The notes below the pieces were generated by a model. The model saw nothing but the letters and a program-made list of their open reading frames with translations, was not told the DNA's origin and searched no databases. DNA of 64,000 nucleotides. It comes from Sphingobacterium sp. BN32 (lineage in GTDB: Bacteria > Bacteroidota > Bacteroidia > Sphingobacteriales > Sphingobacteriaceae). How positions within the stretch are numbered: position 1 is the stretch's first letter; each line of letters opens with the position of its first letter. This document shows, in pieces, positions 26,136 to 42,778 of the stretch. The position numbers were made by a program, and so were the translations under genes. The stretch is taken from contig NZ_CP129963.1 of assembly GCF_030503615.1 (NCBI RefSeq), forward strand, positions 3,348,001 to 3,412,000, written 5' to 3'.

Positions 26136-26231
26136 AATCATCCCTCCCCTCTCTGCAACAAATAATCGATAACCCTTAATTTTCGCACAAAAAAAGGCGA
26201 CCAATATTGGCCGCCATAGGTCTTTATACTA
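26136..26231. repeat. Repeat block E, copy 1
   Basis: About 96 bp nearly identical to 40673-40767, including AACCCTTAATTTTCGCACAA and GGCGACCAATATTGGCCGCC. The block carries a terminator active on the minus strand. Confidence 0.8.
26189..26215 (-). terminator. Rho-independent terminator after the sigma-factor gene
   Basis: On the minus strand GGCGGCCAAT / ATTGGTCGCC pair over 10 positions with one G-T wobble, followed by seven T. It belongs to repeat block E. Confidence 0.7.
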
Positions 26232-26400
26232 AGTACTAACTACTAAATACTATTTAAGGCCGCCCTAGGTCTTTATACTAAGTACTAACTACTAAATACT
26301 ACTTAATGCCGCCATAGGTCTTTATACTAAGTACGAACTACTAAATACTATTTAAGGCCGCCATAGGTCTTTATACTAAGTACTAACTACTAAATACTAT
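26209..26400. repeat. Four 49-bp tandem repeats
   Basis: Units start at 26209, 26258, 26307 and 26356. Each begins GGCCGCCATAGGTC (or a one- or two-base variant) and continues TTTATACTAAGTACTAACTA; the last unit is 45 bp. The units differ by only a few substitutions. Confidence 0.9.
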
Positions 26401-26401
26401 C

Positions 26402-26983
26402 TTATTTATTCAACATAAAAAACAAAAATAGACTATAGTATTTAAGATTTTTCTCTTTAAATATTTCCTTTAGCGTTTGAATAGCTTTTGATTTTGCGAA
26501 GTAAACTGTACTCGGCGTTGTATTGAGCATTTCACATATTTCGTTGGTTTCCAGCCCCTCGAAAAAAGACATTTTGAAAACCTTAGCTTGTGTCGCAGGC
26601 AATTTCTCTAACTCCTTTGAAATCGCATTTAATAATTCATTATAGATTATTTGAGCTTCGAAATCCTGATCAGGTTGGATTAACAAGTCAAGCGCGTCAG
26701 AATCGTGCTTCATGCGATTTACATTTAAATCCACGTAATCATAACAAGCATTTCTGGTAGAAAGGTAAAGAAATGCCCTTACATTCGCCTCCGTTTTTGT
26801 TCTTGCTCTACCATTCCATAGCTTATAGAAACTATCCGAAACAATCTCCTCTGCTGCTCCTTTATCCTTCACAATTGAATACGCAAAGAATCGTAGCGAA
26901 CTTCCATATTTCGACATGTAAAAGGTAAGTCCAGCTTCCTTTCCATTTCTCAAATCTGATAATGGCACTGATGAAGGTATCAT
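26402..26983 (-). CDS. ECF (FecI-like) RNA polymerase sigma factor
   Basis: A protein of 193 residues. Sigma region 2 is visible in LRFFAYSIVKDKGAAEEIVSDSFYKLWNGR, and region 4 in LEKLPATQAKVFKMSFFEGLETNEICEMLNTTPSTVYFAKSKAIQTLKEIF. It belongs to the Bacteroidota group that works with FecR anti-sigma factors and STN-containing SusC receptors. Normally it is encoded beside the anti-sigma gene; here the only anti-sigma gene in reach is 12 kb upstream at the other end of the same-strand locus. A hairpin before it suggests its own promoter. Confidence 0.92.
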   Translation of the reverse strand: MIPSSVPLSDLRNGKEAGLTFYMSKYGSSLRFFAYSIVKDKGAAEEIVSDSFYKLWNGRARTKTEANVRAFLYLSTRNACYDYVDLNVNRMKHDSDALDLLIQPDQDFEAQIIYNELLNAISKELEKLPATQAKVFKMSFFEGLETNEICEMLNTTPSTVYFAKSKAIQTLKEIFKEKNLKYYSLFLFFMLNK

Positions 26984-27040
26984 AAATTAGTGCTTAGGTT
27001 TATCTTTGAAATTACTAAATAGTTTTAATACTATAAAACA

Positions 27041-27069
27041 AATAGCGTCATTTTGACAATGACGCTATT
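27041..27069 (-). terminator. Hairpin terminator between the catabolic operon and the sigma gene
   Basis: AATAGCGTCATT and AATGACGCTATT form a perfect 12-bp stem with a 5-nt loop, 22 bp past the stop of the preceding gene. The minus strand continues TGTTTTATAG, only moderately T-rich. Confidence 0.65.
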
Positions 27070-27091
27070 CCGTGTAAAAATACGTCAAGAG

Positions 27092-29401
27092 TTAGGAATA
27101 CTCCTCAATTAACTTTGAACAATTCAACGCCTTCTCAAATAAATCCTGAGGGACGTAGAAGTAATGGTTCGAAGCTTCAAAGCCGATGCGAGAATCTCCC
27201 CCCTGAACCGACGCCAAACGTAGAGCCAAATCAATTTCCGATTTCAATATATTTTTCAGCTGCGCTTTGATATCATTAGCATTTGACGATTGAAGTTCCC
27301 GTCTAGCCATAATAAACTTTGCCTGATTAACGATGCTTGCGTAGTGTAAATATAGCGCTTCGGCAACATTGATCTCCTGCTGCATCACTTTGCTAATATT
27401 TTTGTTCTTCGTTGTAGATTTTAACAGTTCTATCCCTTTTGAAAACCCGTCGCATACCTTCTGAAGTTGGCTTACAAAAACATCTTCAGGGTAAATACTT
27501 CGCCAGCTTTTCAAATCATCATAAGGCAATCCTACCATGGTAGCTTTATAATTTGTTTCGTTCTTCCATAAAAGATTGGAAGGACCGGCTTGTAATGGCG
27601 CAGTATATACTACACTGATATTGTAAGGAAACTCCCTAAAAGCCATACTAAAAATCTTCCAGGCCTCAGCGACTTTAGCGCCGTACTCTCCATAACGATT
27701 ATCTGCGACTTTCAATATAGCTTCCTCGAAAGGCATCGATTTGTTTTTGCCTAGCATATCGACTAATTCCAGGTTCGGAGATGGATATCCTCCCAAGCTC
27801 CAACCTAACATTAATCCCGTTACTCCGGCATTCCTTAAGTTTGAAATATGTTGTCCAACGTTGTACAATGCAGGGATATATGGTATTGCTCCTATTTCCC
27901 AGCTATTGTTGGCTTGAATTTTTGCCATACAGGCTATATCGTTCTCCTTAGCTATTTTCCAATGCTTTGTGGCTCTTGGGCCAGGACCGATGCTGCTTAT
28001 CGAATACTCGCCTACTTGGCTTTTTATTCCTCCTCGTTCAATGGGCAAACTCCATTCACTCACGCTCATAAAACTCAGCGACTCGTTCTTCAGACTCGGC
28101 AATACAACTTCCGCAATACCGTCCTGCCAACCCCAGTCCCAAACAATTAGACGAGGTTTAATAGAATGTTCTTCCTGTGTTTTCTTCGCTTTGGCGTATC
28201 CTTGTCCGATGGCGTCAATATATAGATTATTCAACTCCGCGATTACTTTTCCTGGCCCTTTGGGTCCGCAATTTGGACATAAATCTCCTCGATAATGCGA
28301 CCAACAATGTGTCGGATTCTCGGAGGCACTGATAGAGAAAAAACCACCTAGACCAGGTACGCGTTCCGCTATTACGGAAAGCGAATTTTTTAAATATTCT
28401 TGGACTTCTGGTTTACTTGTACATAATGAATTCCCACTACCCTTTAACTGGGGATATTTATCAAAAAATTCTTTCGTTTGATTTCGAGGCTCGTTGAGAT
28501 ACAAATAAATCTTTATACCCTTCTCACCCGCACGATCAACAAGCTTTGCCATATTAGACAATCGCTTTTCCCAGTTCTTGCTTTGTTTCATATCCCAAGG
28601 GAAAGGCGATATTTTGCTCAACACAATATGCATCCATATACTGTCGACACCTTTAGCGTGCATTTTCTCTAAATAGGCATCTGGATAAGACTCTGTACTC
28701 TCCGACAATAAGGGATCTCCAAATAATGCGAAATAGGGGTAAGCTATTCTTGGACTAAACATGGAATCTCCTTCTTCGACTTTCGTCGGGCTTGCGGCCG
28801 ATAGCTCTTCGACAAAATGGAAGAAAGGTTCCTCTTGCTTTGGTAATCCATTTGGAAACACGGATTGCAAGCGCTTCTTAAATTTCACCAATTCTGCTTT
28901 ATCCAAGCTCTTCATACCCTCGGTATAATTCAAAATTTTACATTTAGGCTTTAGATTGCCTAGCTTTACGTAGAAAAAGTCATCTTCAATAAGCGTAAAT
29001 TCCAAATGTTCACTCGTCCAGTCCATTAAGAGCAAAAGCTGAGATTTCGGCAATAAATGCCAATTTCTTCGTATGACAGTTAGATAACTACGCTCCCACT
29101 GCGAATTGCTAACCGCTTGCTCCTTTGGGAGCATCATTTCCCGGGCAAGTCCTCTTATTTGCGACGTTGTTGCGCCTATTGTCTTTGCCATGCGTTCGGT
29201 GGGTACCAAGTTCCAATTTCGCCACACAAAAGCATGTATTAAACTGGGAAAATGCGTTGGAATTAAGGCTAGAGGACCGTCGGTGTCAGGCTCTATATGT
29301 TGAAACTCATAAGGTATCATTCCTAGGCCAAGAAAGGCTCCAACTGCCAATCCACTACTTGCTAAAAACTGACGTCTATTTATAGATGATGTTAAGGTCA
29401 T
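27092..29401 (-). CDS. Tat-exported TIM-barrel-like protein, possible glycoside hydrolase
   Basis: A protein of 769 residues. MTLTSSINRRQFLASSGLAV is a twin-arginine signal. ATG 29401 is preferred because the longer frame to 29425 would overlap ridA. After an N-terminal region, residues about 230-560 look like a barrel: DSIWMHIVLSKISPFPWD, GEKGIKIYLYLNEPRNQ, FFSISASENPTHCWSHYRGDLCPNC, LIVWDWGWQDG, GVTGLMLGWSLGGYPSPNLEL. SASENP may hold a catalytic Glu, and the paired cysteines C-PNC with the nearby THC could bind a metal or form disulfides. It probably cleaves or processes the imported ligand outside the inner membrane. I cannot name the family. Last gene before a terminator. Confidence 0.7.
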   Translation of the reverse strand: MTLTSSINRRQFLASSGLAVGAFLGLGMIPYEFQHIEPDTDGPLALIPTHFPSLIHAFVWRNWNLVPTERMAKTIGATTSQIRGLAREMMLPKEQAVSNSQWERSYLTVIRRNWHLLPKSQLLLLMDWTSEHLEFTLIEDDFFYVKLGNLKPKCKILNYTEGMKSLDKAELVKFKKRLQSVFPNGLPKQEEPFFHFVEELSAASPTKVEEGDSMFSPRIAYPYFALFGDPLLSESTESYPDAYLEKMHAKGVDSIWMHIVLSKISPFPWDMKQSKNWEKRLSNMAKLVDRAGEKGIKIYLYLNEPRNQTKEFFDKYPQLKGSGNSLCTSKPEVQEYLKNSLSVIAERVPGLGGFFSISASENPTHCWSHYRGDLCPNCGPKGPGKVIAELNNLYIDAIGQGYAKAKKTQEEHSIKPRLIVWDWGWQDGIAEVVLPSLKNESLSFMSVSEWSLPIERGGIKSQVGEYSISSIGPGPRATKHWKIAKENDIACMAKIQANNSWEIGAIPYIPALYNVGQHISNLRNAGVTGLMLGWSLGGYPSPNLELVDMLGKNKSMPFEEAILKVADNRYGEYGAKVAEAWKIFSMAFREFPYNISVVYTAPLQAGPSNLLWKNETNYKATMVGLPYDDLKSWRSIYPEDVFVSQLQKVCDGFSKGIELLKSTTKNKNISKVMQQEINVAEALYLHYASIVNQAKFIMARRELQSSNANDIKAQLKNILKSEIDLALRLASVQGGDSRIGFEASNHYFYVPQDLFEKALNCSKLIEEYS

Positions 29402-29406
29402 AATAT

Positions 29407-29784
29407 TTACTTTTTTGCAACACAATCAATTTCTACTTTTATCCCCCGCATAAGAACAGACTGTACAGTCGTTCGTGCAGGCTTAATATTTGGAAAATAG
29501 GTTCGATAAACGGCGTTAAAGGCGTCGAAATCTTCCATATCCGCTAGATGAACATTACATTTTACGATGTTGTGGAACCCCATTTCTTCTTGCGATAAGA
29601 TTAGTCTAATGTTTTCCATCGTTTGTCTAGTTTCCTCTTCTATCGTACTTAGCAGAAAAGTTCCCGTTGAAACATCAACAGAGCCTTGACCGCTTACATA
29701 CATCCAATTATCATCTAATATTGCATCGCTTAAAGGAGGGTCGGATTCTAGCATCCTCATTGGGTGTTTTATACTTTTCATCAT
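29407..29784 (-). CDS. RidA-family protein
   Basis: A protein of 125 residues with the Rid layout: YVSGQGSVDVSTG, EEETRQTMENIRLIL, CNVHLADMEDFDAFNAVYRTYFPNIKPARTTVQSV and final VEIDCVAKK. The arginine in KPARTTV is the conserved imine/enamine-binding residue. Rid proteins hydrolyse reactive enamines or imines, or, in catabolic clusters, related intermediates. Here it lies 5 bp after the amidohydrolase gene, so it is likely to be a pathway-specific member rather than housekeeping RidA. Confidence 0.9.
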   Translation of the reverse strand: MMKSIKHPMRMLESDPPLSDAILDDNWMYVSGQGSVDVSTGTFLLSTIEEETRQTMENIRLILSQEEMGFHNIVKCNVHLADMEDFDAFNAVYRTYFPNIKPARTTVQSVLMRGIKVEIDCVAKK

Positions 29785-29789
29785 TTGGT

Positions 29790-30626
29790 TTATGGTTTAA
29801 TATTGTAAAAATCTCTGCATGTGTTCCCCCAGATTGCTGCCTGTTCTACCTCGGTAAGCTTTGAAATATGTTGTTCGACGATAGCACACACTTCCGCATA
29901 AGACCCGCCAAGCTTACATACTGGCCAGTCACTTCCAAACATCATTCTATGGGGGCCAAAAACCGATAAGCAAAAATCAATGACTTCCTTAAAATCATCA
30001 ACTTGCCAACGATTCCAATCCGCTTCAGTAACGAGACCTGCTAATTTGCAGCCTACATGATCCATCGACTTAAACTCACTTATCTCCTTTTTCCAGTCCG
30101 TGAAATTTCTATTCTTAATGTCCGGCTTACCAATATGGTCTATTATTAATTTCTGATCAGAAAATGTCTTACAAAATTCTAAAGCTATCTCTAGGTGTTT
30201 CGGGTAAATCAATACATCGTAGGTAAAATTGTACTTCTTCAACAGAGCGATTCCATTCATAAAAGATGGTTTCAATAAAAAGTTTAGATCAGGCTCAGAT
30301 TGAACAATATGTCTAAATCCCTTCATCAGGTTATCCTCCGCGTAGAAAGCAAGTCTTTCTTCGATGTTGTTGCTCCGAAAATCGACCCAGCCAACGACCG
30401 CAACGAAGGAAGGGTGCTGTTTAGCGAGTGTCAATAGAAAATAGTTCTCCTTTTCACTCTGATCCGCTTGCACTAAAATGCCTTGTTCGATGCCTGCATC
30501 GTTCATCTGATGCAATAAATCATCGGGCATATAGTCAGACTTTAAGACTTCCATCTCGTCGGTAATCCAAGCATCTTTTATCGGATGGTATTTCCAGAAA
30601 TGGATATGGCTATCTATTTTCATCAT
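29790..30626 (-). CDS. Amidohydrolase-2 family, lactonase-like (COG3618)
   Basis: A protein of 278 residues. MMKIDSHIHFWKY has the H-x-H metal site; later ligands are in LIIDHIGKPD and MMFGSDWPVCKLGG (Asp). The ending WGNTCRDFYNI is typical of the L-fuconolactonase, L-rhamnonolactonase and related sugar-lactone hydrolase group. In this operon a lactonase would open a sugar lactone before the UxaA-type dehydratase acts on the resulting aldonate. It sits 5 bp after the large dehydratase subunit gene. Confidence 0.87.
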   Translation of the reverse strand: MMKIDSHIHFWKYHPIKDAWITDEMEVLKSDYMPDDLLHQMNDAGIEQGILVQADQSEKENYFLLTLAKQHPSFVAVVGWVDFRSNNIEERLAFYAEDNLMKGFRHIVQSEPDLNFLLKPSFMNGIALLKKYNFTYDVLIYPKHLEIALEFCKTFSDQKLIIDHIGKPDIKNRNFTDWKKEISEFKSMDHVGCKLAGLVTEADWNRWQVDDFKEVIDFCLSVFGPHRMMFGSDWPVCKLGGSYAEVCAIVEQHISKLTEVEQAAIWGNTCRDFYNIKP

Positions 30627-30631
30627 AATAT

Positions 30632-31852
30632 TCAGGCTAAACAGGAAGGTCCTGCCGGTTCAAAAAACTTATAGCCAAGCGAAAACTCAAAGTGCCCTAA
30701 TTCTTCTGCTTTTGTTCGTTTGCCACCTGCTGCTTCGGCAATACGAAGAATGATCTCATTCGCAATATCGTCCAAACTGCTCTCTCCCAATAGTATTTTT
30801 CCAGCATTCACATCCATGTTTTCCTCCAAACGCACATAATTCTCCGGATTTGCCATAATTTTTATAACGGGCGATATTGCAGAACCAGCAACTGAGCCCC
30901 TTCCGGTGGTAAATAAAATACAATGAGCACCCGAAGCGATCAATTCATTCATTTCCGAGATATCATTTGGATTTGGAAAACCGAATGTAGGCTCACCATC
31001 AGGTACAATATCCATTAGATATAATCCAGGAACCGTCGGTAGGTCGCAAGGCTTTAATACTCCAACTATTGCTGATGATCCGCTCTTACAGTAGGCTCCG
31101 ATAGATTTTTCCTCCAATGTGGTCAGACCGCCTTCGGCATTTCCAGGCGCAAAACTTCCATGCCCCATTTTCGCATAATAAGATGCGGCCTTTAGTATCG
31201 TGTTTTTTAATTCCTCACCTAGGTCTGGACGACTTGCTCTACGTTTCAAATCGTCCTCTAATCCAATCATTTCGCCTGTATTTTCAAAAATACAGGTACT
31301 CTCAAGCGTTTGTAATTTATCAAATGCTAATCCCGTAGCCGGATTGGCAGTTAGTCCACTTGTCGCGTCGCTTCCTCCGGAAACCACGCCTATAATCATA
31401 TCTTTCCAATAAATATCAGTTCGAGGAACTTGCTCTAATTGCGCTAATGCAAACGTGATAAACTGCTTACCCTCCTCGATGGCCATTTTCGTACCTCCAG
31501 TCTGTTGAATACCTACTAGCTTTACCGGTCTGCTGGAAGCCTCCACATGCTTGAACAGTGAGCTTCCGTTAAAACTCTCACATCCCAGAGAAACCAATAA
31601 CACGGCTCCGACATTTGGTTGGGTACAAAGCGAATGCATCATTCGCTCGGCGTAGCTATTCGGATAACAGCCACTAAATCCAATCATTTGAACTTGTTGT
31701 TCATCAAATTGTAGCGCTATTTTTTGAGCGACATGCCTAGCACACTCTACTAAATAAACAATTAGAACAATGTTTCTAATTCCTTTCCTACCATCCGCGC
31801 GTAAATAACCACTGCCTAGACTGTTGTTTTTACTTGTTATCAAATCGTTCAT
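30632..31852 (-). CDS. UxaA-family dehydratase/lyase, large subunit
   Basis: A protein of 406 residues corresponding to the C-terminal part of altronate/galactarate-type dehydratases: GYLRADGRKGIRNIVLIVYLVECARHVA, GCYPNSYAERMM, GCESFNGSSLF, QQTGGT, GVVSGGSDATSGLTANPATGLAFD, ENTGEMIGLEDDL and FTTGRGSVAGSAISPVIKI. The family binds iron and dehydrates hexonates or, in the SuyB branch, eliminates sulfite from sulfolactate. Its start overlaps the small-subunit gene by 23 bp. The substrate is unclear; the lactonase neighbour argues for an aldonate. Confidence 0.9.
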   Translation of the reverse strand: MNDLITSKNNSLGSGYLRADGRKGIRNIVLIVYLVECARHVAQKIALQFDEQQVQMIGFSGCYPNSYAERMMHSLCTQPNVGAVLLVSLGCESFNGSSLFKHVEASSRPVKLVGIQQTGGTKMAIEEGKQFITFALAQLEQVPRTDIYWKDMIIGVVSGGSDATSGLTANPATGLAFDKLQTLESTCIFENTGEMIGLEDDLKRRASRPDLGEELKNTILKAASYYAKMGHGSFAPGNAEGGLTTLEEKSIGAYCKSGSSAIVGVLKPCDLPTVPGLYLMDIVPDGEPTFGFPNPNDISEMNELIASGAHCILFTTGRGSVAGSAISPVIKIMANPENYVRLEENMDVNAGKILLGESSLDDIANEIILRIAEAAGGKRTKAEELGHFEFSLGYKFFEPAGPSCLA

Positions 31853-32126
31853 CCTTAGAATATGTTGGTAAATAATCGCTTTTCAAATTATGTAAATGCA
31901 CATGTTCTCCAAGTTGGATTTTCTTCGTGGCAGAACCGATCTTCATACCAAACTTGATGACTTTCTCACCTATTTGGATGTTACAGGCAGCGATTTTATG
32001 CCCTCGCCCCAAATCATAGGGAATTTTAATCGGGTTGCCATTAATCTCAATGATTTCACCTGATACAACAGGCTCTTTCAGAACATAGACATTATCGTCA
32101 TCATTAATCTTATATAACTTTTCCAT
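31830..32126 (-). CDS. UxaA-family dehydratase, small SAF-domain subunit
   Basis: A protein of 98 residues forming the SAF domain that in E. coli UxaA is the N-terminal part of one chain: YKINDDDNVYVLKEPVVSGEIIEINGNPIKIPYDLGRGHKIAACNIQIGEKVIKFGMKIGSATKKIQLGEHVHLHNLKSDY. His43 in GRGHKIA and the HVHLHN ending are the usual conserved sites. The split into two overlapping genes is known for SuyA/SuyB and some UxaA relatives. It is preceded by the MFS permease gene with an 11-bp gap. Confidence 0.9.
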   Translation of the reverse strand: MEKLYKINDDDNVYVLKEPVVSGEIIEINGNPIKIPYDLGRGHKIAACNIQIGEKVIKFGMKIGSATKKIQLGEHVHLHNLKSDYLPTYSKDERFDNK

Positions 32127-32137
32127 CGATTTAAACG

Positions 32138-33346
32138 TTAATGTGGTCTCAGTTTACTGCCTATTAAAGCATAGAATAACAGATATAGATATGCTGGAAT
32201 ACAGACTGAATAGGCGATTTGATGTCCATACAGATCCGCCAAATAACCGAAGATTAAAGGAAGAATTGCCCCCCCAATAATACCCATCACCAATACAGAA
32301 GCTCCTTTTTTAGTAAATCGTCCTAGGTCACGTAATGCTAAAGGAAATACCGTCGGCCATAGTAGGGAGTTTGCGAACCCCAGAGCGGCGACGAAATAGA
32401 TGGACATGATTGGTTCTACAATCAATATGACTATTGTAGTTACTATACCCAAAAGTGTGCATATAACTAATCCTTGTCTTTGTGAGAGTCGCTTTGGGAT
32501 TAGGCTTACGCCACACAAATAGCCAAACACCATTCCAAAGGTCGTATACCAAACATAGTGTTCAGGATGTTCGAGATTTAAGCTTTTAGCATAATCATTG
32601 ATTGATCCAAGAGCGATTATTTCCACTCCGACATCAAAGAATATTGCAATGGCACCGAGATATAGGTGTGGGATTTGAAATATGGATGATTTTGTATTCC
32701 CATAAACACTTGTATCAAGTTCGTCGATTGCGCTGTCTTCACCAGGTGCTGAAATTTCCGGTAATGGAGAAAAGTAGATAGCAATACCCACTAAAATGGC
32801 AATGACAGCAATACTGTAAAAAGGAATCTTTAGGTGGTTGATATCTACATCTTGCAAGTCTAAGAACAGGGCTAATATAAAGGACGCACCTGCGAGTGCC
32901 AGCTTATCCGCTATTCCCATGATACTGATTCGTTTGGCTGCAGAATCCGGTGATCCAAGTATTGTTACGTAAGAATTGATGGAATCCGTGAGCAAGGTCT
33001 GAGCAATTCCCAATACAAAAAGGCCGAAAAGGAATAATTCAAAACTAGCTGACTGGGAAGAAAAGGCTATTAATGTGAATCCAACCGCCAATATGAAAAA
33101 TGAGGTACAAATAGAATTACGGTATCCAATCTTTTTTAGCAACATCGCCGAGGGAATGGCAAACAGCACGTAAGCCGAAAAGGTAGCCGTCATAATCAGA
33201 TAGGAGGTTGCTCTTTTTAAGGCAAATGCTTCCTGTACAAAAGGTATGAAATAGGCATTTATGCCTATAGAAAAGCCCAATACCGCATACATACACCCGA
33301 TAATGATCAAATAAAGCCTAACATTTGTAGATGACAATGTCTTCAT
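32138..33346 (-). CDS. MFS transporter (FucP-like sugar permease group)
   Basis: A protein of 402 residues with 12 predicted helices. Helix 1 reads LYLIIIGCMYAVLGFSIGINAYFIPFVQEAF, and a late segment is ASVLVMGIIGGAILPLIFGYLADLYG, which resembles the C-terminal ITGGAxxPxxxGxxxD motif of FucP-type H+ symporters. It would carry the product released in the periplasm across the inner membrane. It lies between the creatininase-family gene (10 bp) and the UxaA small subunit gene (11 bp), so it is within one operon. Confidence 0.88.
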   Translation of the reverse strand: MKTLSSTNVRLYLIIIGCMYAVLGFSIGINAYFIPFVQEAFALKRATSYLIMTATFSAYVLFAIPSAMLLKKIGYRNSICTSFFILAVGFTLIAFSSQSASFELFLFGLFVLGIAQTLLTDSINSYVTILGSPDSAAKRISIMGIADKLALAGASFILALFLDLQDVDINHLKIPFYSIAVIAILVGIAIYFSPLPEISAPGEDSAIDELDTSVYGNTKSSIFQIPHLYLGAIAIFFDVGVEIIALGSINDYAKSLNLEHPEHYVWYTTFGMVFGYLCGVSLIPKRLSQRQGLVICTLLGIVTTIVILIVEPIMSIYFVAALGFANSLLWPTVFPLALRDLGRFTKKGASVLVMGIIGGAILPLIFGYLADLYGHQIAYSVCIPAYLYLLFYALIGSKLRPH

Positions 33347-33356
33347 AATCTTGATA

Positions 33357-34103
33357 TTAGGATTTCGGCTTCAATTTATCTTTCAAATGATCCTTAACTC
33401 TGGCTAGTACAGCTTCACCATATTCCAAGCTGGCGTCTTTTGCAGTCTGCGTGTACCATTTATCCTCCGAGAAATGATCCATATACACCCCTTCAGGACA
33501 AACAGCCATCATTAATGCTGTTTCTAGTTTCCCGGCATGATCTATAGGATAATCCTTCTGAATAGAATCGGACAATAATGGATAAGCTTGAATCCAATTA
33601 AATGGATTATCGCCTTCCTCATGGCCTTCATAATAATTTGCAGATTCTGCTTTACCCCACCAACCTTCACCAAATTGGCGCTCAATAAAATCGAACAAGG
33701 TTTGCCGTGCTGCTAATTTGAAAGATAGATCAGTTGGCATCCCTGCTGCAAAGTTTTCACTCTGATGATGCACAATGACATGGATATTTCGAAAACCAAT
33801 CCTTAGCAAGTTCATAAATAATGAACTTGCAAAAGGATAAAGTATATCTGGCCGATTATGTATACTACCATTTGCTTCAGGCCCTTCGACCGCGTAGCTT
33901 GCAGCGCCATAATAAAAGGCTGGTAAAATAATAAAGGGAACTTCGTTTTCTAATTGTGCTAACGTTTCCGTAATCACCAAAGTGTCTACTCCTGTGCATA
34001 AATGCTCTCCATGATATTCCAACACACCTAATGGAAGAACGACCGGAATGTTGTCAGCTATCGCCTTACGAATCTGTGTCGGAATCATTAATTCGTATCT
34101 CAT
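33357..34103 (-). CDS. Creatininase-family hydrolase
   Basis: A protein of 248 residues. The family signature is LPLGVLEYHGEHLCTGVDTLVITETL, with metal-binding Glu and His (EYHGEH, D-x-L), followed by YGAASYAVEGPEANGSIHN and NIHVIVHHQSENFAAGM; EGHEEG and HAGKLETALMMAVCPE supply the later metal ligand. Members open cyclic amides or, in IolN of the Thermotoga inositol pathway, cleave a cyclic diketo-inositol. In this sugar-acid context an IolN-like ring opening is attractive, but the sequence does not prove it. It lies 25 bp after susD. Confidence 0.88.
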   Translation of the reverse strand: MRYELMIPTQIRKAIADNIPVVLPLGVLEYHGEHLCTGVDTLVITETLAQLENEVPFIILPAFYYGAASYAVEGPEANGSIHNRPDILYPFASSLFMNLLRIGFRNIHVIVHHQSENFAAGMPTDLSFKLAARQTLFDFIERQFGEGWWGKAESANYYEGHEEGDNPFNWIQAYPLLSDSIQKDYPIDHAGKLETALMMAVCPEGVYMDHFSEDKWYTQTAKDASLEYGEAVLARVKDHLKDKLKPKS

Positions 34104-34128
34104 ATTAAATTAGTTTTAGCGTTCATAA

Positions 34129-35775
34129 CTACCAACCTTGGTTCTGTTCTAGGTTTCCATTTTTATCAATTTCGCCTTGTGGAATCGGCATAAAATACAT
34201 TTTGCTTTCAAACACGATCGGTGTTGGATCGACTTCAGGATAAGCATATGTGAAGCTGCCGTCAGCATGCTTTGTTATTAAGGCTCCGTGATATTTTTTC
34301 CCGTTCAAAAATGTTTCTGCCAATTTCCATCGTCTTAGATCCCAATATCTCTTTTTCTCAAAGCACATTTCCACGTAACGTTCGTTACGAATCAAATCGC
34401 GCATCTGTACTTTATTTAGTGATCCTACCGCCAAATCTGTTGTTATACCTGCGCGTTTTCGAAGTGTATTCAACGCTTGATAGACGGAAGCATCTGGCGC
34501 GGAAAGCGCCTCATTCTGAGCCTCTGCATAATTCAACAACACCTCTGCATAGCGCAGTTCTATCCATGGCTGGTCACTTCCTGTGCTTCCGGTATAGATT
34601 GTATTATCCGGATTGATAGCTTTTCGCGTATAGTAGCTCGTTATGGTGTTATAGATCGTGTTCTCTTTTGAGGCATCATAATCTCTACCACCTGAGTATG
34701 TTTCCAACGTGATTTCACGAACCGGCGGACCGGAAGTTGTTCCCTTGACTTTAGACCCATTAAATGCGATGAATGCATAAAATCGATCGTCGCGACCGAC
34801 ATAGGGATCATTCGGATTATAATTCGATCCTGCTTCTTTGATTCCTTTTCCGTTCTTCATCGGAAATGCATCTACCAACTCCTGCAATGGAGATAGTTGA
34901 CCAGCATTGTTATTGGCAAGGATTAGGGGTCTTAAACCGGCATCCCAACTGTGTTGCTTTTCTGGCAACTTGTATTGGATTTCAAAGATTGACTCTACAT
35001 GATTATTTGCTTTATCTAACCATATTTTATTCAAGTCGGGATACAAACTATATCTGTTCAAATCCATCAATTCTTTATTTGCTTTTGCAGCGTCTGCCCA
35101 GAGCGCGTTGTTATTTTCCTGATTATAGAGGGGACTCGCATGATACAACAAAACCCTTCCCAACAGGGCCATGGCCGAGCCTTGCGATGCTCTTCCTCTT
35201 GGGGCTGAAGCAGGTAATTCGTCCGTAGCCAGTTTTAATTCAGTAGCGATGAACTCGAACGTTTCCTTAACGCCTGCTCTTTTTACCATTAAATCATCTG
35301 AGATATTTTGTGCTGTTGTAATAATTGGAACTCCGCCATAACGCTTGACCATATCAAAATATAGAAATGCTCTTAGAAAGCGTGCTTCGCCTTTCAGGCG
35401 TTTTCGCGTATCCTCGTCAAGTGTAGCGGCATCTATTTTCGACAGAAACTCATTTGCACGACGAACCTGTTGATAGGCCCAAAAACCGAGAGGATTATAT
35501 GTTTGATCCCATTGGCCACGAAGTATTTGGTTTGGCGCATCCCCTGTATAATTGCATCGTCCTTCGTCAACTATGTTGTCTTGCGTATTTGAATACTCGT
35601 ATCCTTGTCGGTCATTATACATTTGATTGACTAATAGTTCAATCAATTTGCCATCTGACCATACGTCTTCTTCCGAAATAGCCGATGGATTCTTGGGGTC
35701 TAAAAAGTCTGACTCGCAGGAAGAAAAGGCGAAAGTAAAGAAAGCGACTATTGCTATATATTTTGTGAATTTCAT
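34129..35775 (-). CDS. SusD/RagB-like lipoprotein
   Basis: A protein of 548 residues. MKFTKYIAIVAFFTFAFSSC is a lipoprotein signal with lipobox FSSC followed by ESDFLDPKNPSAISEEDVW, the usual SusD opening. TPR-like helices follow (EARFLRAFLYFDMVKRYGGVPIIT; ELRYAEVLLNYAEAQNEAL), and the C-terminus has LIRNERYVEMCFEKKRYWDLRRWK. It caps the SusC barrel encoded 11 bp upstream and captures the ligand at the cell surface. Confidence 0.95.
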   Translation of the reverse strand: MKFTKYIAIVAFFTFAFSSCESDFLDPKNPSAISEEDVWSDGKLIELLVNQMYNDRQGYEYSNTQDNIVDEGRCNYTGDAPNQILRGQWDQTYNPLGFWAYQQVRRANEFLSKIDAATLDEDTRKRLKGEARFLRAFLYFDMVKRYGGVPIITTAQNISDDLMVKRAGVKETFEFIATELKLATDELPASAPRGRASQGSAMALLGRVLLYHASPLYNQENNNALWADAAKANKELMDLNRYSLYPDLNKIWLDKANNHVESIFEIQYKLPEKQHSWDAGLRPLILANNNAGQLSPLQELVDAFPMKNGKGIKEAGSNYNPNDPYVGRDDRFYAFIAFNGSKVKGTTSGPPVREITLETYSGGRDYDASKENTIYNTITSYYTRKAINPDNTIYTGSTGSDQPWIELRYAEVLLNYAEAQNEALSAPDASVYQALNTLRKRAGITTDLAVGSLNKVQMRDLIRNERYVEMCFEKKRYWDLRRWKLAETFLNGKKYHGALITKHADGSFTYAYPEVDPTPIVFESKMYFMPIPQGEIDKNGNLEQNQGW

Positions 35776-35786
35776 AACGTTAATAA

Positions 35787-38700
35787 TTAAAATGAAAGCA
35801 TAACACCTAGGTTGTAATTACGTTGTTGCGGATAGTAGTTTCCTGCACCGGTTGCAGCTTCAGGATCTAACTCATCGATTTGGCTAATCGTGAATAGATT
35901 AAATCCGGAAACATAAATTCTCATCTTATTGACTTTGATTTTATCGAGCCAATCACCAGAGAAATTATAGCCTAAGTCCAACGATTTTAAGCGAACATAA
36001 CCCGCTTTGCGCAGCCAGAAATTAGAATCGCGATTATTTATCGATCGAGAGTCAACCCATGCAAGCGGATATTTCGCGTCGGTATTCTCAGGAGACCATG
36101 AATCAGCAAAATAAGCGAAGTTATTACTTGACCCGCCGTTCAAATACATCACTCGTCCAGCGGCAGTCAACATCATATTACGTTGTGACGCACCTTGGAA
36201 AAAGAAATTCATATCTACGTTCTTCCAGGATAGCGATCCATTAAAGCCATACATTATACGTGGTTCACTTCCATAGTTGGCAATGACTTTTTGATCTTGA
36301 ATAGTAATTGCGCCATCGCCATCAATATCCGCATATTTGATATCGCCTGGAAGACTTTGCAATCCAAACTGCTTGCCGCCAAACCATGAATTAGCTTCTT
36401 CTTTTGATCGAAATAAACCCAATGCTTCGTATCCTGCACGGTAACCAATAGGGCGTCCTAGTTGTTTATTAAAATCCATCGCATTCGCAGGATCGTCTAT
36501 TTGCGTTACTTCATTTGTCGCATAAGAACCCACTAGCCTAAAATTGTAACTCCAGTCATTAACAGCGTTCTGATGGCCGATAGTGAATTCGACACCCTTA
36601 CTTTTAACTTTGGCATAATTCTCATTTGGCAATTGGCGGCCAAAAGTTCCAGGCACCGATCTATCCTTGCTCCAAAGGATGTCGCGGGTGTGTCGGAAGA
36701 AATAGTCGACTTCGAAGTTCAGCATAGAATTCCATAAGCTCCATTCCAATCCAATGTTGGTGTTATCTTGTTTTTCCCAAGTGATATTGTAATTCGGATA
36801 TACGCCGTATCCGACCTGCGGCACAGCTTTTCCATCGACCACAGGGCCAGCCCCAGTGATGATCGAATAACTTTCCAAAAACTGATAGGCATTCACTCGA
36901 TCATTTCCAATCAGACCTTTAGAAACGCGTAGCTTTAGGTTATTGATAAAGTTCAAACTTTCATTGTTCTTGAAAAAGGGTTCTTCCGAAATTCTCCATC
37001 CAGCAGAAACTGCGGGGAAGAATCCGAAGCGACTCTCTGTTGGAAAACGATAAGAGCCATCATATCTAAATGTCCCCTCAAACAAATATTTCCCTGCGTA
37101 AGCATAATTTACACGTCCCACAAGCGAACGTCGCGCATCGTTGATATATCCACGTCCATCAATCGATTGGTTAGTTGGTCCACTCGCAAAAAATTCATCT
37201 TTGATATTAGATATAAAATCTTCCTTTCTAGCGGTAAAGTTTTTACCTTTTGCGCCATATTGCTCATACAACAACATACCGCCAAGGCTATGATTATTAA
37301 AATCTCGGGCGTAGTTCAAGGAAATATTGTAAGTCGTATTAGTCAAGGCATCAAAACCTTCTGTTAAAGACGTTTTACTACCGACCATTTTTTCATTCGT
37401 TACATTTCCCTGCGCATCCTCATCGTACATCGTATAGGGCATTGCAAACACCTTATTGAAATAATGTTGTTTGTAATACGAGAAATTTCCATTGAGAGCG
37501 AGCCCTTCAGTAAGTACATCTAGCTTTTGATTGAAGAATAAAGTCCCTTGAAAAATGTCGTATTCTTGATCCTTGTATCCAGAGTTTTTTATCATCTCTA
37601 CAGGATGGGAGCCCGTAGTATTAGCCGCTCTACCACTTGGGTGGTATGCTAAGCGGGTTGGTGAAGCGTTGATAACACGGTGAAAGATTTCCGAAGCGTC
37701 CCAACTTGGGGATTCAAAAAGCTCTTGTCGTGCTTCTAGGTTTAACCCAACGGTTAGACTATTTGTTATCGAGGCATCGATATTCGAACGAATATTATAT
37801 CGTTTGAAACCAATATTATCGTATAGCCCGGTTTGATTCAAATAACCAAGCGAACCGAAATATCGAACAGATTCACTACCGCCCTGGAGACTTAAATTAT
37901 GTTGATTTTGAGGGCTACGATCTTTAAATGTCTCAGCATACCAATCAGTTCCGTTTTCCTTAAATTTCTGTAATTCCGCGTCAGTATAGAAGTTATTTGC
38001 CTGTGCGGGATTATTTGGGTCGTATCCTTGATTATAGAATGCCTGATTGCGCGTAACGCCATAGTCGTAAGCGGTCATTAACGTTGGATATTGGGTTGGC
38101 TCCTGCAGGCCCACCATACCTGAATATGTCAAAACAGGTTTTCCGACTTTTCCTCTCTTTGTGGTTATCAAGATAACCCCGTTTGCTGCACGAGCGCCAT
38201 AGACTGCCGCGGCTGATGCGTCTTTCAAAACGGAGATGCTAGCGACTTCATTTGGATCGATATTTCCAAAGCCATCGGAACGAACAACCCCATCGACTAC
38301 AACCAGTGGGTTATTATCGTTCAATGTACTCAATCCACGAACACGAATAGTGGATCCGCTTCCCGGGCGACCATCAGAGTTCACAGAGGAAACCCCAGGC
38401 ATACGCCCCCCGATGGCATTCGATAGGTTATTTGTTGGTGTTTTTGCGATTTCATCCCCACTAACCGTGGCGACAGAACCTGTTAAATTGATTTTCTTCT
38501 GCGTACCATATCCAACTACGACAACCTCATCAATATCATCGACAACCTCCAATAAGGTAATATTTACATTTGATCGATTGCCAATTGCAACTTCTTTACT
38601 CGAAAACCCCATCAAACTAACAACTAGGACAGGGTTTTGGATAGCATAGGATAATGAATACTCACCTCTTTCATTAGTTGAAACAGCCGCAGGAGTTCCT

Positions 38701-39188
38701 TTTATCGTCACGGTAGCCCCTGCTAAAGGCTCTCCTGAATCTTTGCTAACAACGCCTTGAACGGTGCTTTGTTGATTCCAACCGTTAAGACTCTCGGTAT
38801 GAATTTGCAATTTTTGAGGCTTCAGATATCCATTCTGCTCTTGCTTAATTACGATGATGTCATCTTGCATTTCCCATGAAACTGGTTTCCCTTTCAAGAG
38901 CGACTCCAAAGCGAGCGATAAATCCATCGACTTCACATTAATATTCACCTTAAGCTCAGCTAGTTTTCTCCCGTTTAGAAAAAACTGTTTGCCGGTCTGC
39001 TGTTGAATGCTCCGCATCGCCTGTACCAAAGTAATGCCCTCCCCCTTCAGGGTGACCTGCTGCGCAATTCCATTCCCTAGAACGGTGCAGATATTTAAGA
39101 AAGTTAATAAGACTATTAATTTCATGGCTAGTAAAAATGGCTTCCCTAAAGACCTGATTCGGTCTTTAACAATTGAATAAAAAATCAT
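35787..39188 (-). CDS. SusC/RagA TonB-dependent transporter with STN signalling domain
   Basis: A protein of 1133 residues. After the signal segment, an STN domain (about 45-115, VTLKGEGITLVQAMRSIQQQ .. DDIIVIKQ) is present; it contacts a FecR-type anti-sigma factor. Next are a CarboxypepD_reg-like domain (about 138-215, VQGVVSKDSGEPLAGATVTI), the TonB box region with DEVVVVGYGTQKKINLTGSV, the plug and the barrel ending YNLGVMLSF. The STN domain and the fecR gene just upstream show ligand-induced, ECF-sigma controlled expression of the locus. The imported compound is unknown. Confidence 0.95.
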   Translation of the reverse strand: MIFYSIVKDRIRSLGKPFLLAMKLIVLLTFLNICTVLGNGIAQQVTLKGEGITLVQAMRSIQQQTGKQFFLNGRKLAELKVNINVKSMDLSLALESLLKGKPVSWEMQDDIIVIKQEQNGYLKPQKLQIHTESLNGWNQQSTVQGVVSKDSGEPLAGATVTIKGTPAAVSTNERGEYSLSYAIQNPVLVVSLMGFSSKEVAIGNRSNVNITLLEVVDDIDEVVVVGYGTQKKINLTGSVATVSGDEIAKTPTNNLSNAIGGRMPGVSSVNSDGRPGSGSTIRVRGLSTLNDNNPLVVVDGVVRSDGFGNIDPNEVASISVLKDASAAAVYGARAANGVILITTKRGKVGKPVLTYSGMVGLQEPTQYPTLMTAYDYGVTRNQAFYNQGYDPNNPAQANNFYTDAELQKFKENGTDWYAETFKDRSPQNQHNLSLQGGSESVRYFGSLGYLNQTGLYDNIGFKRYNIRSNIDASITNSLTVGLNLEARQELFESPSWDASEIFHRVINASPTRLAYHPSGRAANTTGSHPVEMIKNSGYKDQEYDIFQGTLFFNQKLDVLTEGLALNGNFSYYKQHYFNKVFAMPYTMYDEDAQGNVTNEKMVGSKTSLTEGFDALTNTTYNISLNYARDFNNHSLGGMLLYEQYGAKGKNFTARKEDFISNIKDEFFASGPTNQSIDGRGYINDARRSLVGRVNYAYAGKYLFEGTFRYDGSYRFPTESRFGFFPAVSAGWRISEEPFFKNNESLNFINNLKLRVSKGLIGNDRVNAYQFLESYSIITGAGPVVDGKAVPQVGYGVYPNYNITWEKQDNTNIGLEWSLWNSMLNFEVDYFFRHTRDILWSKDRSVPGTFGRQLPNENYAKVKSKGVEFTIGHQNAVNDWSYNFRLVGSYATNEVTQIDDPANAMDFNKQLGRPIGYRAGYEALGLFRSKEEANSWFGGKQFGLQSLPGDIKYADIDGDGAITIQDQKVIANYGSEPRIMYGFNGSLSWKNVDMNFFFQGASQRNMMLTAAGRVMYLNGGSSNNFAYFADSWSPENTDAKYPLAWVDSRSINNRDSNFWLRKAGYVRLKSLDLGYNFSGDWLDKIKVNKMRIYVSGFNLFTISQIDELDPEAATGAGNYYPQQRNYNLGVMLSF

Positions 39189-39315
39189 AATTTTAAGTGG
39201 TTTAAATTGTTTCTGTTGCTTTTAATTGGCCTTCCTATTGTTCAATTGATGTAATAATCGATTTAAATCACGTCCAAATAGTGTAGCAGCACTATTTGGA
39301 CTCCTTTTGAATCCA

Positions 39316-40536
39316 TTATTTCTTGACTACTAACCGAAAACGGTTATCTTGTTTTTCCATTCTGAATTTTACACCTCCTTTTTCTAGTGTTTTTAGTACT
39401 GTGGTTAATTTGTTGGAACGATTTATTTCCGCATAAAATTGAGATTGTGGGATCTCTCCTTCGTAGCGAACATCGAAATCATACCATCTACTCAATACGT
39501 TCAATGCTTGGCTTAGGTCAGTATTGTTGAAAATGAACTTATTATCTTTCCATCCTAAAACGTCGTCAGTGTTAAACTGTGTCTTCTCGATAGCTGAATT
39601 GCTAATGATCGACTGTTCTCCTGGATTTAGATTTAATTTTCCCGCAGGTCTGTGTGCTTCCCTCACACGGACTTTACCATGTACTAAACTTGTTTTCTCA
39701 ACCTTATCGTCAGCGTAAGCTTCTACATTAAATGCAGTGCCTAACACTTCTATAATTTGTCTTTTAGTATGTATTAAAAACGGTGTCCGAACCTGCTCTT
39801 GATCTGCATGGTCCTGATGATATCTTGTGGAAACTTCGAAATATCCTTCGCCTGACAGCTCTACCAATCGCTCATTGTTTTTAAACTTCAGAGGATATTT
39901 CAACACAGATCCAGAGTTTAACCAAACCTTCGTTCCGTCGCCTAAAACGAGATGATAATTACCCCCTTTCGGAACCTCCAAACTAAGCATCTCAATATTG
40001 GATAGTTCAGAGTCATTGCCAACGGATGTTCCATCAACATAGGATAAACCGTTATCTATTAGAAGTCCAGACTTTGCGGAGTTAAGCTCGATAACTTTCC
40101 CATTATCGAGTCGCAGAATTGCTTTAGAAGATGGTGTTGGAATTTCACTAACAATCTCGATATTAGAACTATTTCGACTTTGTTGATATAAAATAAATAA
40201 AGTAGAAATGGAGAGTGTGATCAGTAATAGACTCGCTATACGAAGCCAGGACATTCGTTTTAGTTTAACTGGAGGAATGTTAATTTCATGATCTCGAATC
40301 TTTCGAATGGTTTGAATCTTCAACCTTTCCTCCCAGGAATCATTATCTGATTTTTCTAATTCTAGTTTTTCAACTAAATCATCCCACAGCACACCATCCT
40401 CTCCAATTTTTTCCAATAGCTGGTGGAAATAAGGGTTTGCGGAAGCATAGTTTTCCAGAATAGTTAATTCTTCTTCGCTAATACTACCATCGATTCGCTT
40501 CTGTAAAAGCGATAATATTTCATCGAGATTATACAT
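39316..40536 (-). CDS. FecR-family anti-sigma factor
   Basis: A protein of 406 residues. The N-terminal cytoplasmic part (about 1-93) with a helical sigma-binding region is followed by one transmembrane helix (WLRIASLLLITLSISTLFILY, about 95-115), a periplasmic FecR domain (about 180-290, VPKGGNYHLVLGDGTKVWLNSGS; EVLGTAFNVEAYADD) and a C-terminal DUF4974 domain (FIFNNTDLSQALNVLSRWYDFDV). It keeps an ECF sigma factor inactive until the STN domain of the SusC receptor signals. No sigma gene lies upstream of it; the only one in the locus is at 26402-26983. Confidence 0.94.
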   Translation of the reverse strand: MYNLDEILSLLQKRIDGSISEEELTILENYASANPYFHQLLEKIGEDGVLWDDLVEKLELEKSDNDSWEERLKIQTIRKIRDHEINIPPVKLKRMSWLRIASLLLITLSISTLFILYQQSRNSSNIEIVSEIPTPSSKAILRLDNGKVIELNSAKSGLLIDNGLSYVDGTSVGNDSELSNIEMLSLEVPKGGNYHLVLGDGTKVWLNSGSVLKYPLKFKNNERLVELSGEGYFEVSTRYHQDHADQEQVRTPFLIHTKRQIIEVLGTAFNVEAYADDKVEKTSLVHGKVRVREAHRPAGKLNLNPGEQSIISNSAIEKTQFNTDDVLGWKDNKFIFNNTDLSQALNVLSRWYDFDVRYEGEIPQSQFYAEINRSNKLTTVLKTLEKGGVKFRMEKQDNRFRLVVKK

Positions 40537-40672: not shown

Positions 40673-40767
40673 AATCATCCCTCCTTCCCTTCAACAAATA
40701 GTAGATAACCCTTAATTTTCGCACAAAAAAAGGCGACCAATATTGGCCGCCATAGGTCTTTATACTA
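40673..40767. repeat. Repeat block E, copy 2
   Basis: Nearly identical to 26136-26231: AATCATCCCTCC, then CAACAAATA, AACCCTTAATTTTCGCACAA and GGCGACCAATATTGGCCGCC, then GGTCTTTATACTAA. Confidence 0.8.
40725..40751 (-). terminator. Rho-independent terminator after the SGNH gene
   Basis: On the minus strand GGCGGCCAAT / ATTGGTCGCC then seven T, 34 bp after the stop codon. It is the same hairpin as at 26189-26215. Confidence 0.75.
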
Positions 40768-40784
40768 ATACTAAGTACTAAATT

Positions 40785-42724: not shown

Positions 42725-42778
42725 TAGTCGATTAAGTTGAAAGATTAAATTTAATGAAACAAATTGTAAATGCAAGGT

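What the first reader, a model, noticed from the sequence alone, without database searches (positions are those of the whole stretch)
26402..40536. Uncharacterised uptake-and-catabolism locus combining SusCD, creatininase-family hydrolase, split UxaA dehydratase, lactonase and RidA
Eight genes with gaps of mostly 5-26 bp run on one strand from susC to the Tat-exported barrel protein. Established knowledge: SusCD imports across the outer membrane, FucP-like MFS carries sugars inward, COG3618 proteins open sugar lactones, UxaA-type enzymes dehydrate aldonates or release sulfite (SuyAB), and creatininase-family IolN cleaves a cyclic diketo-inositol. The combination suggests degradation of a cyclic polyol, an unusual sugar acid or a lactam/sulfonate. 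No aldolase, kinase or dehydrogenase is in the locus, so the end of the pathway must lie elsewhere. The substrate and chemistry are inference.
Basis: partly seen in the sequence, partly recalled or inferred. Interest (0 to 1): 0.62.

Follow-up and report, generated by a model that had tools for sequence, protein, structure and literature searches.

The report
Probable amino-fucose uptake and breakdown locus
A rare, conserved gene set in soil-type Bacteroidota appears to import and break down a fucose-like sugar, most likely one carrying an acetylated amino group, by a modified version of a known fucose pathway; the substrate is predicted, not shown.

Summary
Nine genes run on the minus strand (susC, susD, creatininase-family, MFS, small and large UxaA subunits, COG3618 lactonase, RidA, exported barrel protein), bracketed by a FecR anti-sigma gene and an ECF sigma gene. 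The set recurs in 8 genomes of 3 genera of the family, a core of it also in Dyadobacter, and is otherwise rare.

It is not an inositol (IolN) locus, and nothing supports a sulfonate. Its lactonase and split UxaA belong with non-phosphorylating L-fucose pathways. The large subunit is 54-60% identical to split UxaA beside fucP/lactonase/SDR/FAH genes in Proteobacteria, but about 31% to this genome's own fused UxaA. The missing dehydrogenases and final hydrolase lie in a canonical fucose cluster 0.9 Mb away; in one relative (G168) equivalents are joined to the locus.

New are the creatininase, RidA, a transporter nearer NagP (GlcNAc) than FucP, and a dehydratase that lost a superfamily-invariant Glu (Asn in 10/10, Glu in 34/34 others) and mostly a conserved Cys. 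I propose an N-acetyl-fucosamine-type sugar: oxidation, lactone opening, deacetylation, dehydration to an imine, RidA hydrolysis, then the fucose route. Fucose-type framework about 0.8; amino-sugar reading, inferred, about 0.4.

The parts
39316..40536 (-). FecR-type anti-sigma factor, first gene of the set
   Evidence: Pfam FecR 43.7 and FecR_C 54.0 bits; same place in 5 other genomes of the genus
35787..39188 (-). SusC/RagA TonB-dependent outer-membrane transporter with N-terminal STN domain
   Evidence: TIGR04056 914.6 bits, cut-off 368; STN
34129..35775 (-). SusD-like outer-membrane substrate-binding lipoprotein
   Evidence: SusD_RagB 198.5 bits
33357..34103 (-). Creatininase-family metal hydrolase; proposed N-deacylase of the 2-amino aldonate
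   Evidence: Creatininase 96.4 bits; far below the creatininase, IolN and MftE equivalog cut-offs; motifs E29-x-H31, D40, HHQ(S/C)E, H189, E194 conserved in 9 homologues
32138..33346 (-). Inner-membrane MFS sugar symporter, nearer to NagP (GlcNAc) than to FucP
   Evidence: NagP 242.6, gluP 208.9, fucP 126.8 bits; same order in four homologues
31830..32126 (-). Small (SAF-like) subunit of split UxaA-type dehydratase
   Evidence: no Pfam hit; 33-38% identical, E 1e-18 to 1e-22, to annotated small UxaA subunits in L071/L072
30632..31852 (-). Large subunit of split UxaA-type dehydratase with altered active-site residues (S158 for Cys, N191 for Glu)
   Evidence: GD_AH_second 93, GD_AH_C 231.8 bits
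29790..30626 (-). COG3618 lactonase of the L-fucono-1,5-lactonase type
   Evidence: NF052480 292.4 bits, cut-off 400; closest solved structure 4dlf, E 2.7e-60
29407..29784 (-). RidA-type enamine/imine hydrolase; catalytic Arg in PARTTV kept
   Evidence: PF01042 95.5 bits; 98.7 bits to TIGR00004, cut-off 106; homologues
27092..29401 (-). Tat-exported protein, very distantly DUF4838-like; proposed periplasmic glycosidase (ATG start at 29401; listed ORF starts at TTG 29425)
   Evidence: no Pfam at cut-off; hhalign of 8 homologues to DUF4838 E=5e-5, probability 68, against 0.06-0.7 in ten controls
27040..27070 (-). 13-bp-stem hairpin after the barrel gene, probable end of the operon transcript
26402..26983 (-). 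ECF sigma factor, last gene of the set, presumed partner of the FecR gene 12 kb away
   Evidence: Sigma70_r2, r4_2; same place in 5 relatives
26147..26232 (.). Left copy of an 86-bp direct repeat containing a terminator-like hairpin
40683..40768 (.). Right copy of the same 86-bp direct repeat (94% identical)
   Evidence: no third full-length copy in the genome

Best explanation
The locus takes up a glycan or glycoside through SusCD, cuts it in the periplasm with the exported barrel protein, and imports a fucose-type 6-deoxyhexose through a NagP-like symporter. The sugar is broken down by a modified non-phosphorylating L-fucose route. Most likely it is N-acetylated at C2 (N-acetyl-fucosamine-like). 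Proposed order: (1) L-fucose-dehydrogenase-type oxidation of C1, enzyme supplied from the fucose cluster; (2) lactone opened by the COG3618 lactonase; (3) N-acetyl group removed by the creatininase-family hydrolase; (4) the split UxaA enzyme removes water across C2-C3, giving a 2-enamine/2-imine instead of an enol; (5) RidA hydrolyses the imine to 2-keto-3-deoxyfuconate plus ammonia; (6) the KDF dehydrogenase and FAH-type hydrolase of the fucose cluster give pyruvate and lactate. Supported by sequence and gene context: gene content, conservation, family membership, the fucose-type framework, location of the missing steps, residue changes. Inferred: the amino group, step order, stereochemistry, and the roles of creatininase, RidA and barrel.
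For: Framework: large UxaA subunit 54-60% identical to split UxaA beside fucP, SDR, amidohydrolase, aldo-keto reductase and mutarotase (Sphingomonas L072) or mutarotase, SDR and FAH (Ponticoccus L071), but 30-31% to this genome's two fused UxaA. A paralogous lineage in G072 sits with an FucP equivalog, an RraA-type aldolase and two GH29 fucosidases. The lactonase scores higher on the L-fuconolactonase model (292 bits) than the lactonase of the genome's own fucose cluster (246). In G168 the locus is joined to L-fucose dehydrogenase (400 bits, cut-off 300), an SDR 65% identical to that of the fucose cluster, FAH (67%) and a NagP-like MFS. All nine locus-bearing genomes tested carry the FAH hydrolase. 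Published precedents: heteromeric UxaA-type L-fuconate dehydratase (PMC6336799), the C. jejuni fucose locus with split uxaA, amidohydrolase and fucP (PMC12566272), a verified KDF dehydrogenase from Sphingobacterium mizutaii (PMC11199699). Amino group: MFS scores NagP 243-259 against fucP 104-129 in five homologues, the reverse of the canonical FucP; creatininase in every locus of this clade that was read in full and absent from the G072 fucose-type locus; RidA in 6 of 8 family loci, and a RidA (OngD) is essential in the oxidative GlcNAc1A pathway (PMC9537276); E191N in 10/10 against Glu in 34/34 and in GarD; C158S in 9/10.
Against: No biochemical or expression data. No creatininase-family sugar deacetylase and no amino-acid substrate for a UxaA-type enzyme is known to me. 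RidA is absent from the G240 and Dyadobacter loci (a copy could act from elsewhere). Dyadobacter has an NCS1 (nucleobase/allantoin-type) permease directly upstream of the creatininase, which could point to a nitrogen heterocycle. NagP and lactonase scores are far below equivalog cut-offs. L-fucose dehydrogenase is near-universal in the family (241/301), so its presence in the genome alone is not evidence; only the G168 linkage is. The Cys/Glu changes could also mean a different leaving group or metal site.
Confidence: 0.42

Rival explanations
1. A second locus for plain L-fucose (or L-galactose/D-arabinose) from fucosylated glycans: SusCD and the barrel protein free the sugar, the MFS imports it, lactonase and split UxaA duplicate the fucose cluster, and creatininase and RidA are accessory.
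For: Every recognisable catabolic relative lies in fucose-type loci; UxaA-type enzymes of this branch include L-fuconate dehydratase and act on substrates sharing C2-C4 configuration (PMC6336799).
Against: The genome already has a complete fucose cluster with FucP and fused UxaA; the locus MFS is not FucP-like; creatininase is kept in every locus of this clade read in full; an otherwise invariant Glu is changed in all 10 dehydratases.
Confidence: 0.2
2. A fucose-type sugar with another modification (3-amino or 4-amino-6-deoxyhexose, or an O-substituted one): the creatininase opens a lactam formed from the amino aldonate, or UxaA removes a C3 substituent other than water.
For: Creatininase-family enzymes hydrolyse cyclic amides (family knowledge); loss of C158 and E191 allows a changed leaving group; sulfolactate sulfo-lyase, which does not eliminate water, is the published exception to the conserved cysteines (PMC6336799); NCS1 permease in Dyadobacter.
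Against: RidA is then unexplained for a C3 amine; nothing positive identifies the position.
Confidence: 0.18
3. The creatininase is an IolN-like beta-diketone hydrolase that replaces the FAH enzyme and cleaves 2,4-diketo-3-deoxyfuconate.
For: IolN, a creatininase-family protein, cleaves a diketo-inositol (model named); the window locus itself lacks FAH.
Against: In G168 the same locus has FAH and the SDR adjacent as well as the creatininase, and all nine genomes tested have FAH; IolN score only 36.9 bits.
Confidence: 0.08
4. One reading: a cyclic polyol (inositol) or a sulfonate.
For: Family names only.
Against: No inositol dehydrogenase, isomerase or sulfonate genes recognised in any of the loci read; IolN far below cut-off; UxaA branch belongs to fucose-type loci.
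Confidence: 0.04

Closest known systems
Non-phosphorylating L-fucose pathway, KDF dehydrogenase/FAH branch (route 3; FucM/A/B/C/F/G in PMC11199699)
   Same: fuconolactonase-type lactonase, UxaA-type dehydratase and a sugar symporter; dehydrogenases and FAH hydrolase present in the same genome and, in G168, adjacent
   Different: window locus lacks both dehydrogenases, mutarotase and FAH; adds SusCD, creatininase, RidA, exported barrel protein; symporter NagP-like; dehydratase residues 158 and 191 changed
Campylobacter jejuni fucose locus (PR2, cj0480c-cj0490)
   Same: uxaA in two genes, amidohydrolase, MFS permease (PMC12566272)
   Different: C. jejuni has dehydrogenase and dapA-type aldolase in the locus; no SusCD, creatininase, RidA or sigma/anti-sigma reported
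Oxidative chitin (ong) pathway of Pseudoalteromonas
   Same: outer-membrane import, periplasmic hydrolase, N-deacetylation and deamination of a 2-acetamido aldonate, an essential RidA protein (PMC9537276)
   Different: ong uses a D-aminoacylase-type deacetylase, a PLP deaminase and a KDG kinase; here creatininase and UxaA families would do these steps
Creatininase family (creatininase, IolN, MftE)
   Same: Pfam PF02633 and metal/catalytic motifs
   Different: below every NCBIfam equivalog cut-off matched; a branch without a characterised member in the searches made here

Membership tests
Non-phosphorylating L-fucose pathway locus | L-fucose 1-dehydrogenase in the locus | tested here: not met
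   absent from the window locus; 67% homologue of the G168 enzyme at 2.4418 Mb; adjacent in G168
Non-phosphorylating L-fucose pathway locus | L-fucono-1,5-lactonase | tested here: inconclusive
   292 bits against a cut-off of 400, best model by far
Non-phosphorylating L-fucose pathway locus | KDF dehydrogenase and FAH-type hydrolase, or KDF aldolase | tested here: not met
   not in the window locus; in the genome's fucose cluster and adjacent in G168
UxaA/GarD dehydratase superfamily | GD_AH_second and GD_AH_C domains | tested here: met
   93 and 231.8 bits
UxaA/GarD dehydratase superfamily | four conserved cysteines (PMC6336799) | tested here: not met
   three of four; the fourth is Ser158 here, Ser in 9 of 10 of the clade, Cys in 34/34 others
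Sulfolactate sulfo-lyase SuyAB | sequence match to SuyA/SuyB | not tested
   no Suy reference compared; no such NCBIfam model listed for the large subunit
IolN 3-dehydro-scyllo-inosose hydrolase | NF041098 cut-off 245 bits | tested here: not met
   36.9 bits
Creatininase (creatinine amidohydrolase) | TIGR04448 cut-off 235 bits | tested here: not met
   70.8 bits; Pfam family membership itself met
NagP GlcNAc transporter | NF046060 cut-off 625 bits | tested here: not met
   242.6 bits, yet the best model
RidA imine deaminase | PF01042 match and catalytic Arg | tested here: met
   95.5 bits; Arg in PARTTV kept in 5 homologues; TIGR00004 just below cut-off
Polysaccharide utilisation locus | SusC/SusD pair plus carbohydrate-active enzyme | tested here: inconclusive
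   SusCD met; barrel protein only distantly DUF4838-like
Oxidative amino-sugar (ong-type) pathway | activity on a 2-acetamido aldonate | not testable with these tools
   needs enzyme assays

The most novel reading that the evidence does not exclude
A previously undescribed oxidative pathway for N-acetyl-fucosamine-type sugars in which a creatininase-family enzyme is the sugar-acid deacetylase, a residue-switched heteromeric UxaA enzyme dehydrates a 2-amino aldonate, and RidA completes the deamination, all without PLP or phosphorylation.
Probability: 0.38. Interest if true: 0.74.

Novelty: new variant of a known kind. Interest (0 to 1): 0.6.

Why it matters
Deoxy-amino sugars such as FucNAc are common in bacterial capsules and O-antigens, yet the paper searches made here found no description of how FucNAc is broken down. 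If right, this gives a route for recycling such sugars, a first sugar deacetylase in the creatininase family, an iron-type dehydratase doing work otherwise done by PLP enzymes, and a concrete role for a RidA protein in sugar catabolism, an issue left open for OngD in PMC9537276. The residue switch (E191N, C158S) makes it testable with two or three purified proteins.

Tried and rejected
Inositol/IolN and sulfonate readings: not supported (and gene contexts). Presence of L-fucose dehydrogenase in the genome as evidence of linkage: rejected because it is near-universal in the family (241/301). Creatininase as a replacement for FAH: disfavoured because G168 has both side by side. Profile search of the barrel alignment against PDB sequences: nothing. 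Plasmid searches for the creatininase and the barrel protein: no match. A class-wide sample of 395 genomes found the creatininase only in the window's own genome. The GarD structure paper was not held, so the function of Glu191 could not be read from it. Paper searches for FucNAc catabolism and for a creatininase-family sugar deacetylase found none.
Full report
OBSERVATION. The operon is real. On the minus strand, from 39188 down to 27092, nine genes follow one another with gaps of 5-25 bp or a short overlap: susC, susD, creatininase-family gene, MFS symporter, small and large UxaA subunits, COG3618 lactonase, ridA, and a 777-aa exported protein with an RR-x-F-L signal. A FecR anti-sigma gene precedes it and an ECF sigma gene follows it, both on the same strand.

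CONSERVATION. The full set including FecR and sigma is syntenic in G077, G013, G088 and G019 and G382. It recurs in two other genera of the family with altered order (G240 without nearby homologous SusCD or RidA; G168 complete). Creatininase, MFS, both UxaA subunits and lactonase also occur together in Dyadobacter bucti; a Dyadobacter MAG contig of 4.2 kb carries the MFS end, both UxaA subunits and the lactonase, the contig starting inside the MFS gene. Only 8 of 301 family genomes and none but the window's own in a class-wide sample of 395 carry the creatininase, so the locus is rare and patchy.

WHERE THE PATHWAY ENDS. The same genome has a canonical oxidative fucose cluster at about 2.4418-2.4486 Mb: L-fucose dehydrogenase, lactonase, FAH hydrolase, SDR, fused UxaA, a mutarotase-like gene, FucP and a divergent regulator. 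A KDF dehydrogenase from Sphingobacterium mizutaii has been verified (PMC11199699). In G168 the window-type locus is physically joined to a second L-fucose dehydrogenase (400 bits, cut-off 300), an SDR 65% and an FAH enzyme 67% identical to those of the fucose cluster, and a NagP-like symporter. All nine locus-bearing genomes tested have the FAH enzyme. Because L-fucose dehydrogenase is near-universal in the family (241/301), only the physical linkage in G168 counts as evidence.

WHICH UXAA. The large subunit is 54-60% identical to split UxaA of Proteobacteria and 62% to one in G072, against 30-31% to this genome's own fused UxaA of the fucose and altronate clusters. Those relatives sit with fucP, SDR, amidohydrolase, aldo-keto reductase and mutarotase (Sphingomonas), with mutarotase, SDR and FAH (Ponticoccus), or with an FucP equivalog, an RraA-type aldolase and GH29 fucosidases (G072). 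Published precedents are the heteromeric L-fuconate dehydratase of Paraburkholderia mimosarum (PMC6336799) and the C. jejuni fucose locus with uxaA in two pieces (PMC12566272). So the framework is fucose-type; I put this at about 0.8.

WHAT IS DIFFERENT. (a) The ten dehydratases of this clade (support 0.99) carry Asn at position 191 where 34 of 34 other UxaA-family proteins aligned, and GarD (6u7l), carry Glu. They also carry Ser for a universal Cys at 158 in nine of ten, the exception being G168, which branches first in the clade. By spacing, Cys158 matches the fourth of four superfamily-conserved cysteines proposed to bind iron (PMC6336799; mapping is my inference). (b) The symporter scores NagP 243-259 and fucP 104-129 in five homologues, while the genome's canonical FucP scores fucP 387 and NagP 159. 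(c) A creatininase-family gene is in every locus of this clade that was read in full, and none lies in the G072 fucose-type locus. (d) RidA, with its catalytic arginine, is in seven of the eight family loci counting the window (all but G240), and is absent from the Dyadobacter bucti locus; the figure of six given elsewhere in this report is a conservative undercount.

MECHANISM PROPOSED. An amidohydrolase-type enzyme, an imine hydrolase and a GlcNAc-transporter-like symporter added to a fucose-type dehydration module are most simply explained by a 2-acetamido-2,6-dideoxyhexose. After oxidation and lactone opening, deacetylation gives a 2-amino aldonate; loss of water across C2-C3 gives an enamine/imine, which RidA hydrolyses to 2-keto-3-deoxyfuconate, the substrate of the fucose-cluster enzymes. 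The ong pathway for GlcNAc1A is a precedent for the logic (deacetylation, deamination, essential RidA) with unrelated deacetylase and deaminase families (PMC9537276). The amino group, the step order and the stereochemistry are inference; about 0.4.

BARREL PROTEIN. No Pfam family reaches its cut-off. A profile of eight homologues aligns to DUF4838 proteins over 290 columns with E=5e-5 and probability 68, against 0.06-0.7 for one reversed, eight column-shuffled and one unrelated control. The shared motif is 'LCTS-P-V...F-I-ASEN...C...C-C'. A periplasmic glycosidase is likely but not shown; single-sequence structure prediction failed. In G168 the homologue has an ordinary (non-RR) signal-like N-terminus.

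WEAK POINTS. RidA is missing near the G240 and Dyadobacter loci. Dyadobacter has an NCS1 nucleobase-type permease upstream of the creatininase, which could point to a nitrogen heterocycle or lactam. Lactonase and NagP scores are below equivalog cut-offs. No activity is known to me for a UxaA enzyme on an amino acid or for a creatininase-family sugar deacetylase.

VERDICT.

Noticed in passing
26147-26232 and 40683-40768: An 86-bp direct repeat (94% identical) holding an identical terminator-like hairpin brackets the 14.5-kb locus; no other full-length copy exists in the genome, though its right half belongs to a dispersed intergenic repeat. It may be a scar of cassette exchange.
   Followed up: partly
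26210-26399: Tandem 49-bp repeats (GCCGCCATAGGTCTTTATACTAAGTACTAACTACTAAATACTA...) downstream of the sigma gene, related to the dispersed intergenic repeat.
   Followed up: no
26402-26983 and 39316-40536: ECF sigma and FecR anti-sigma genes, usually adjacent, sit at opposite ends of the operon; this separation is conserved in five relatives.
   Followed up: partly
L032:6322-7713: Dyadobacter bucti has an NCS1 (cytosine/allantoin-type) permease 5 bp upstream of the locus creatininase gene and a GHL6/fucosidase-like 672-aa protein at the far end.
   Followed up: partly
L038:1-17158: G072 carries another SusCD locus with split UxaA of the fucose type, RraA-like aldolase, FucP, GH29 enzymes, a GH43-like protein and a SASA esterase: probably a fucoside locus with aldolase-type cleavage.
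   Followed up: partly
L033:595-6419: A Bacillota MAG contig has split UxaA with a DctM TRAP transporter, a lactate-racemase-like protein and a 2-hydroxyacid dehydrogenase.
   Followed up: no
40785-45265: Upstream genes encode an SGNH/GDSL esterase, a 3-keto-disaccharide hydrolase-like protein and a TonB receptor; the esterase is conserved beside the locus only in the nearest relatives and the genes are probably not part of it.
   Followed up: partly
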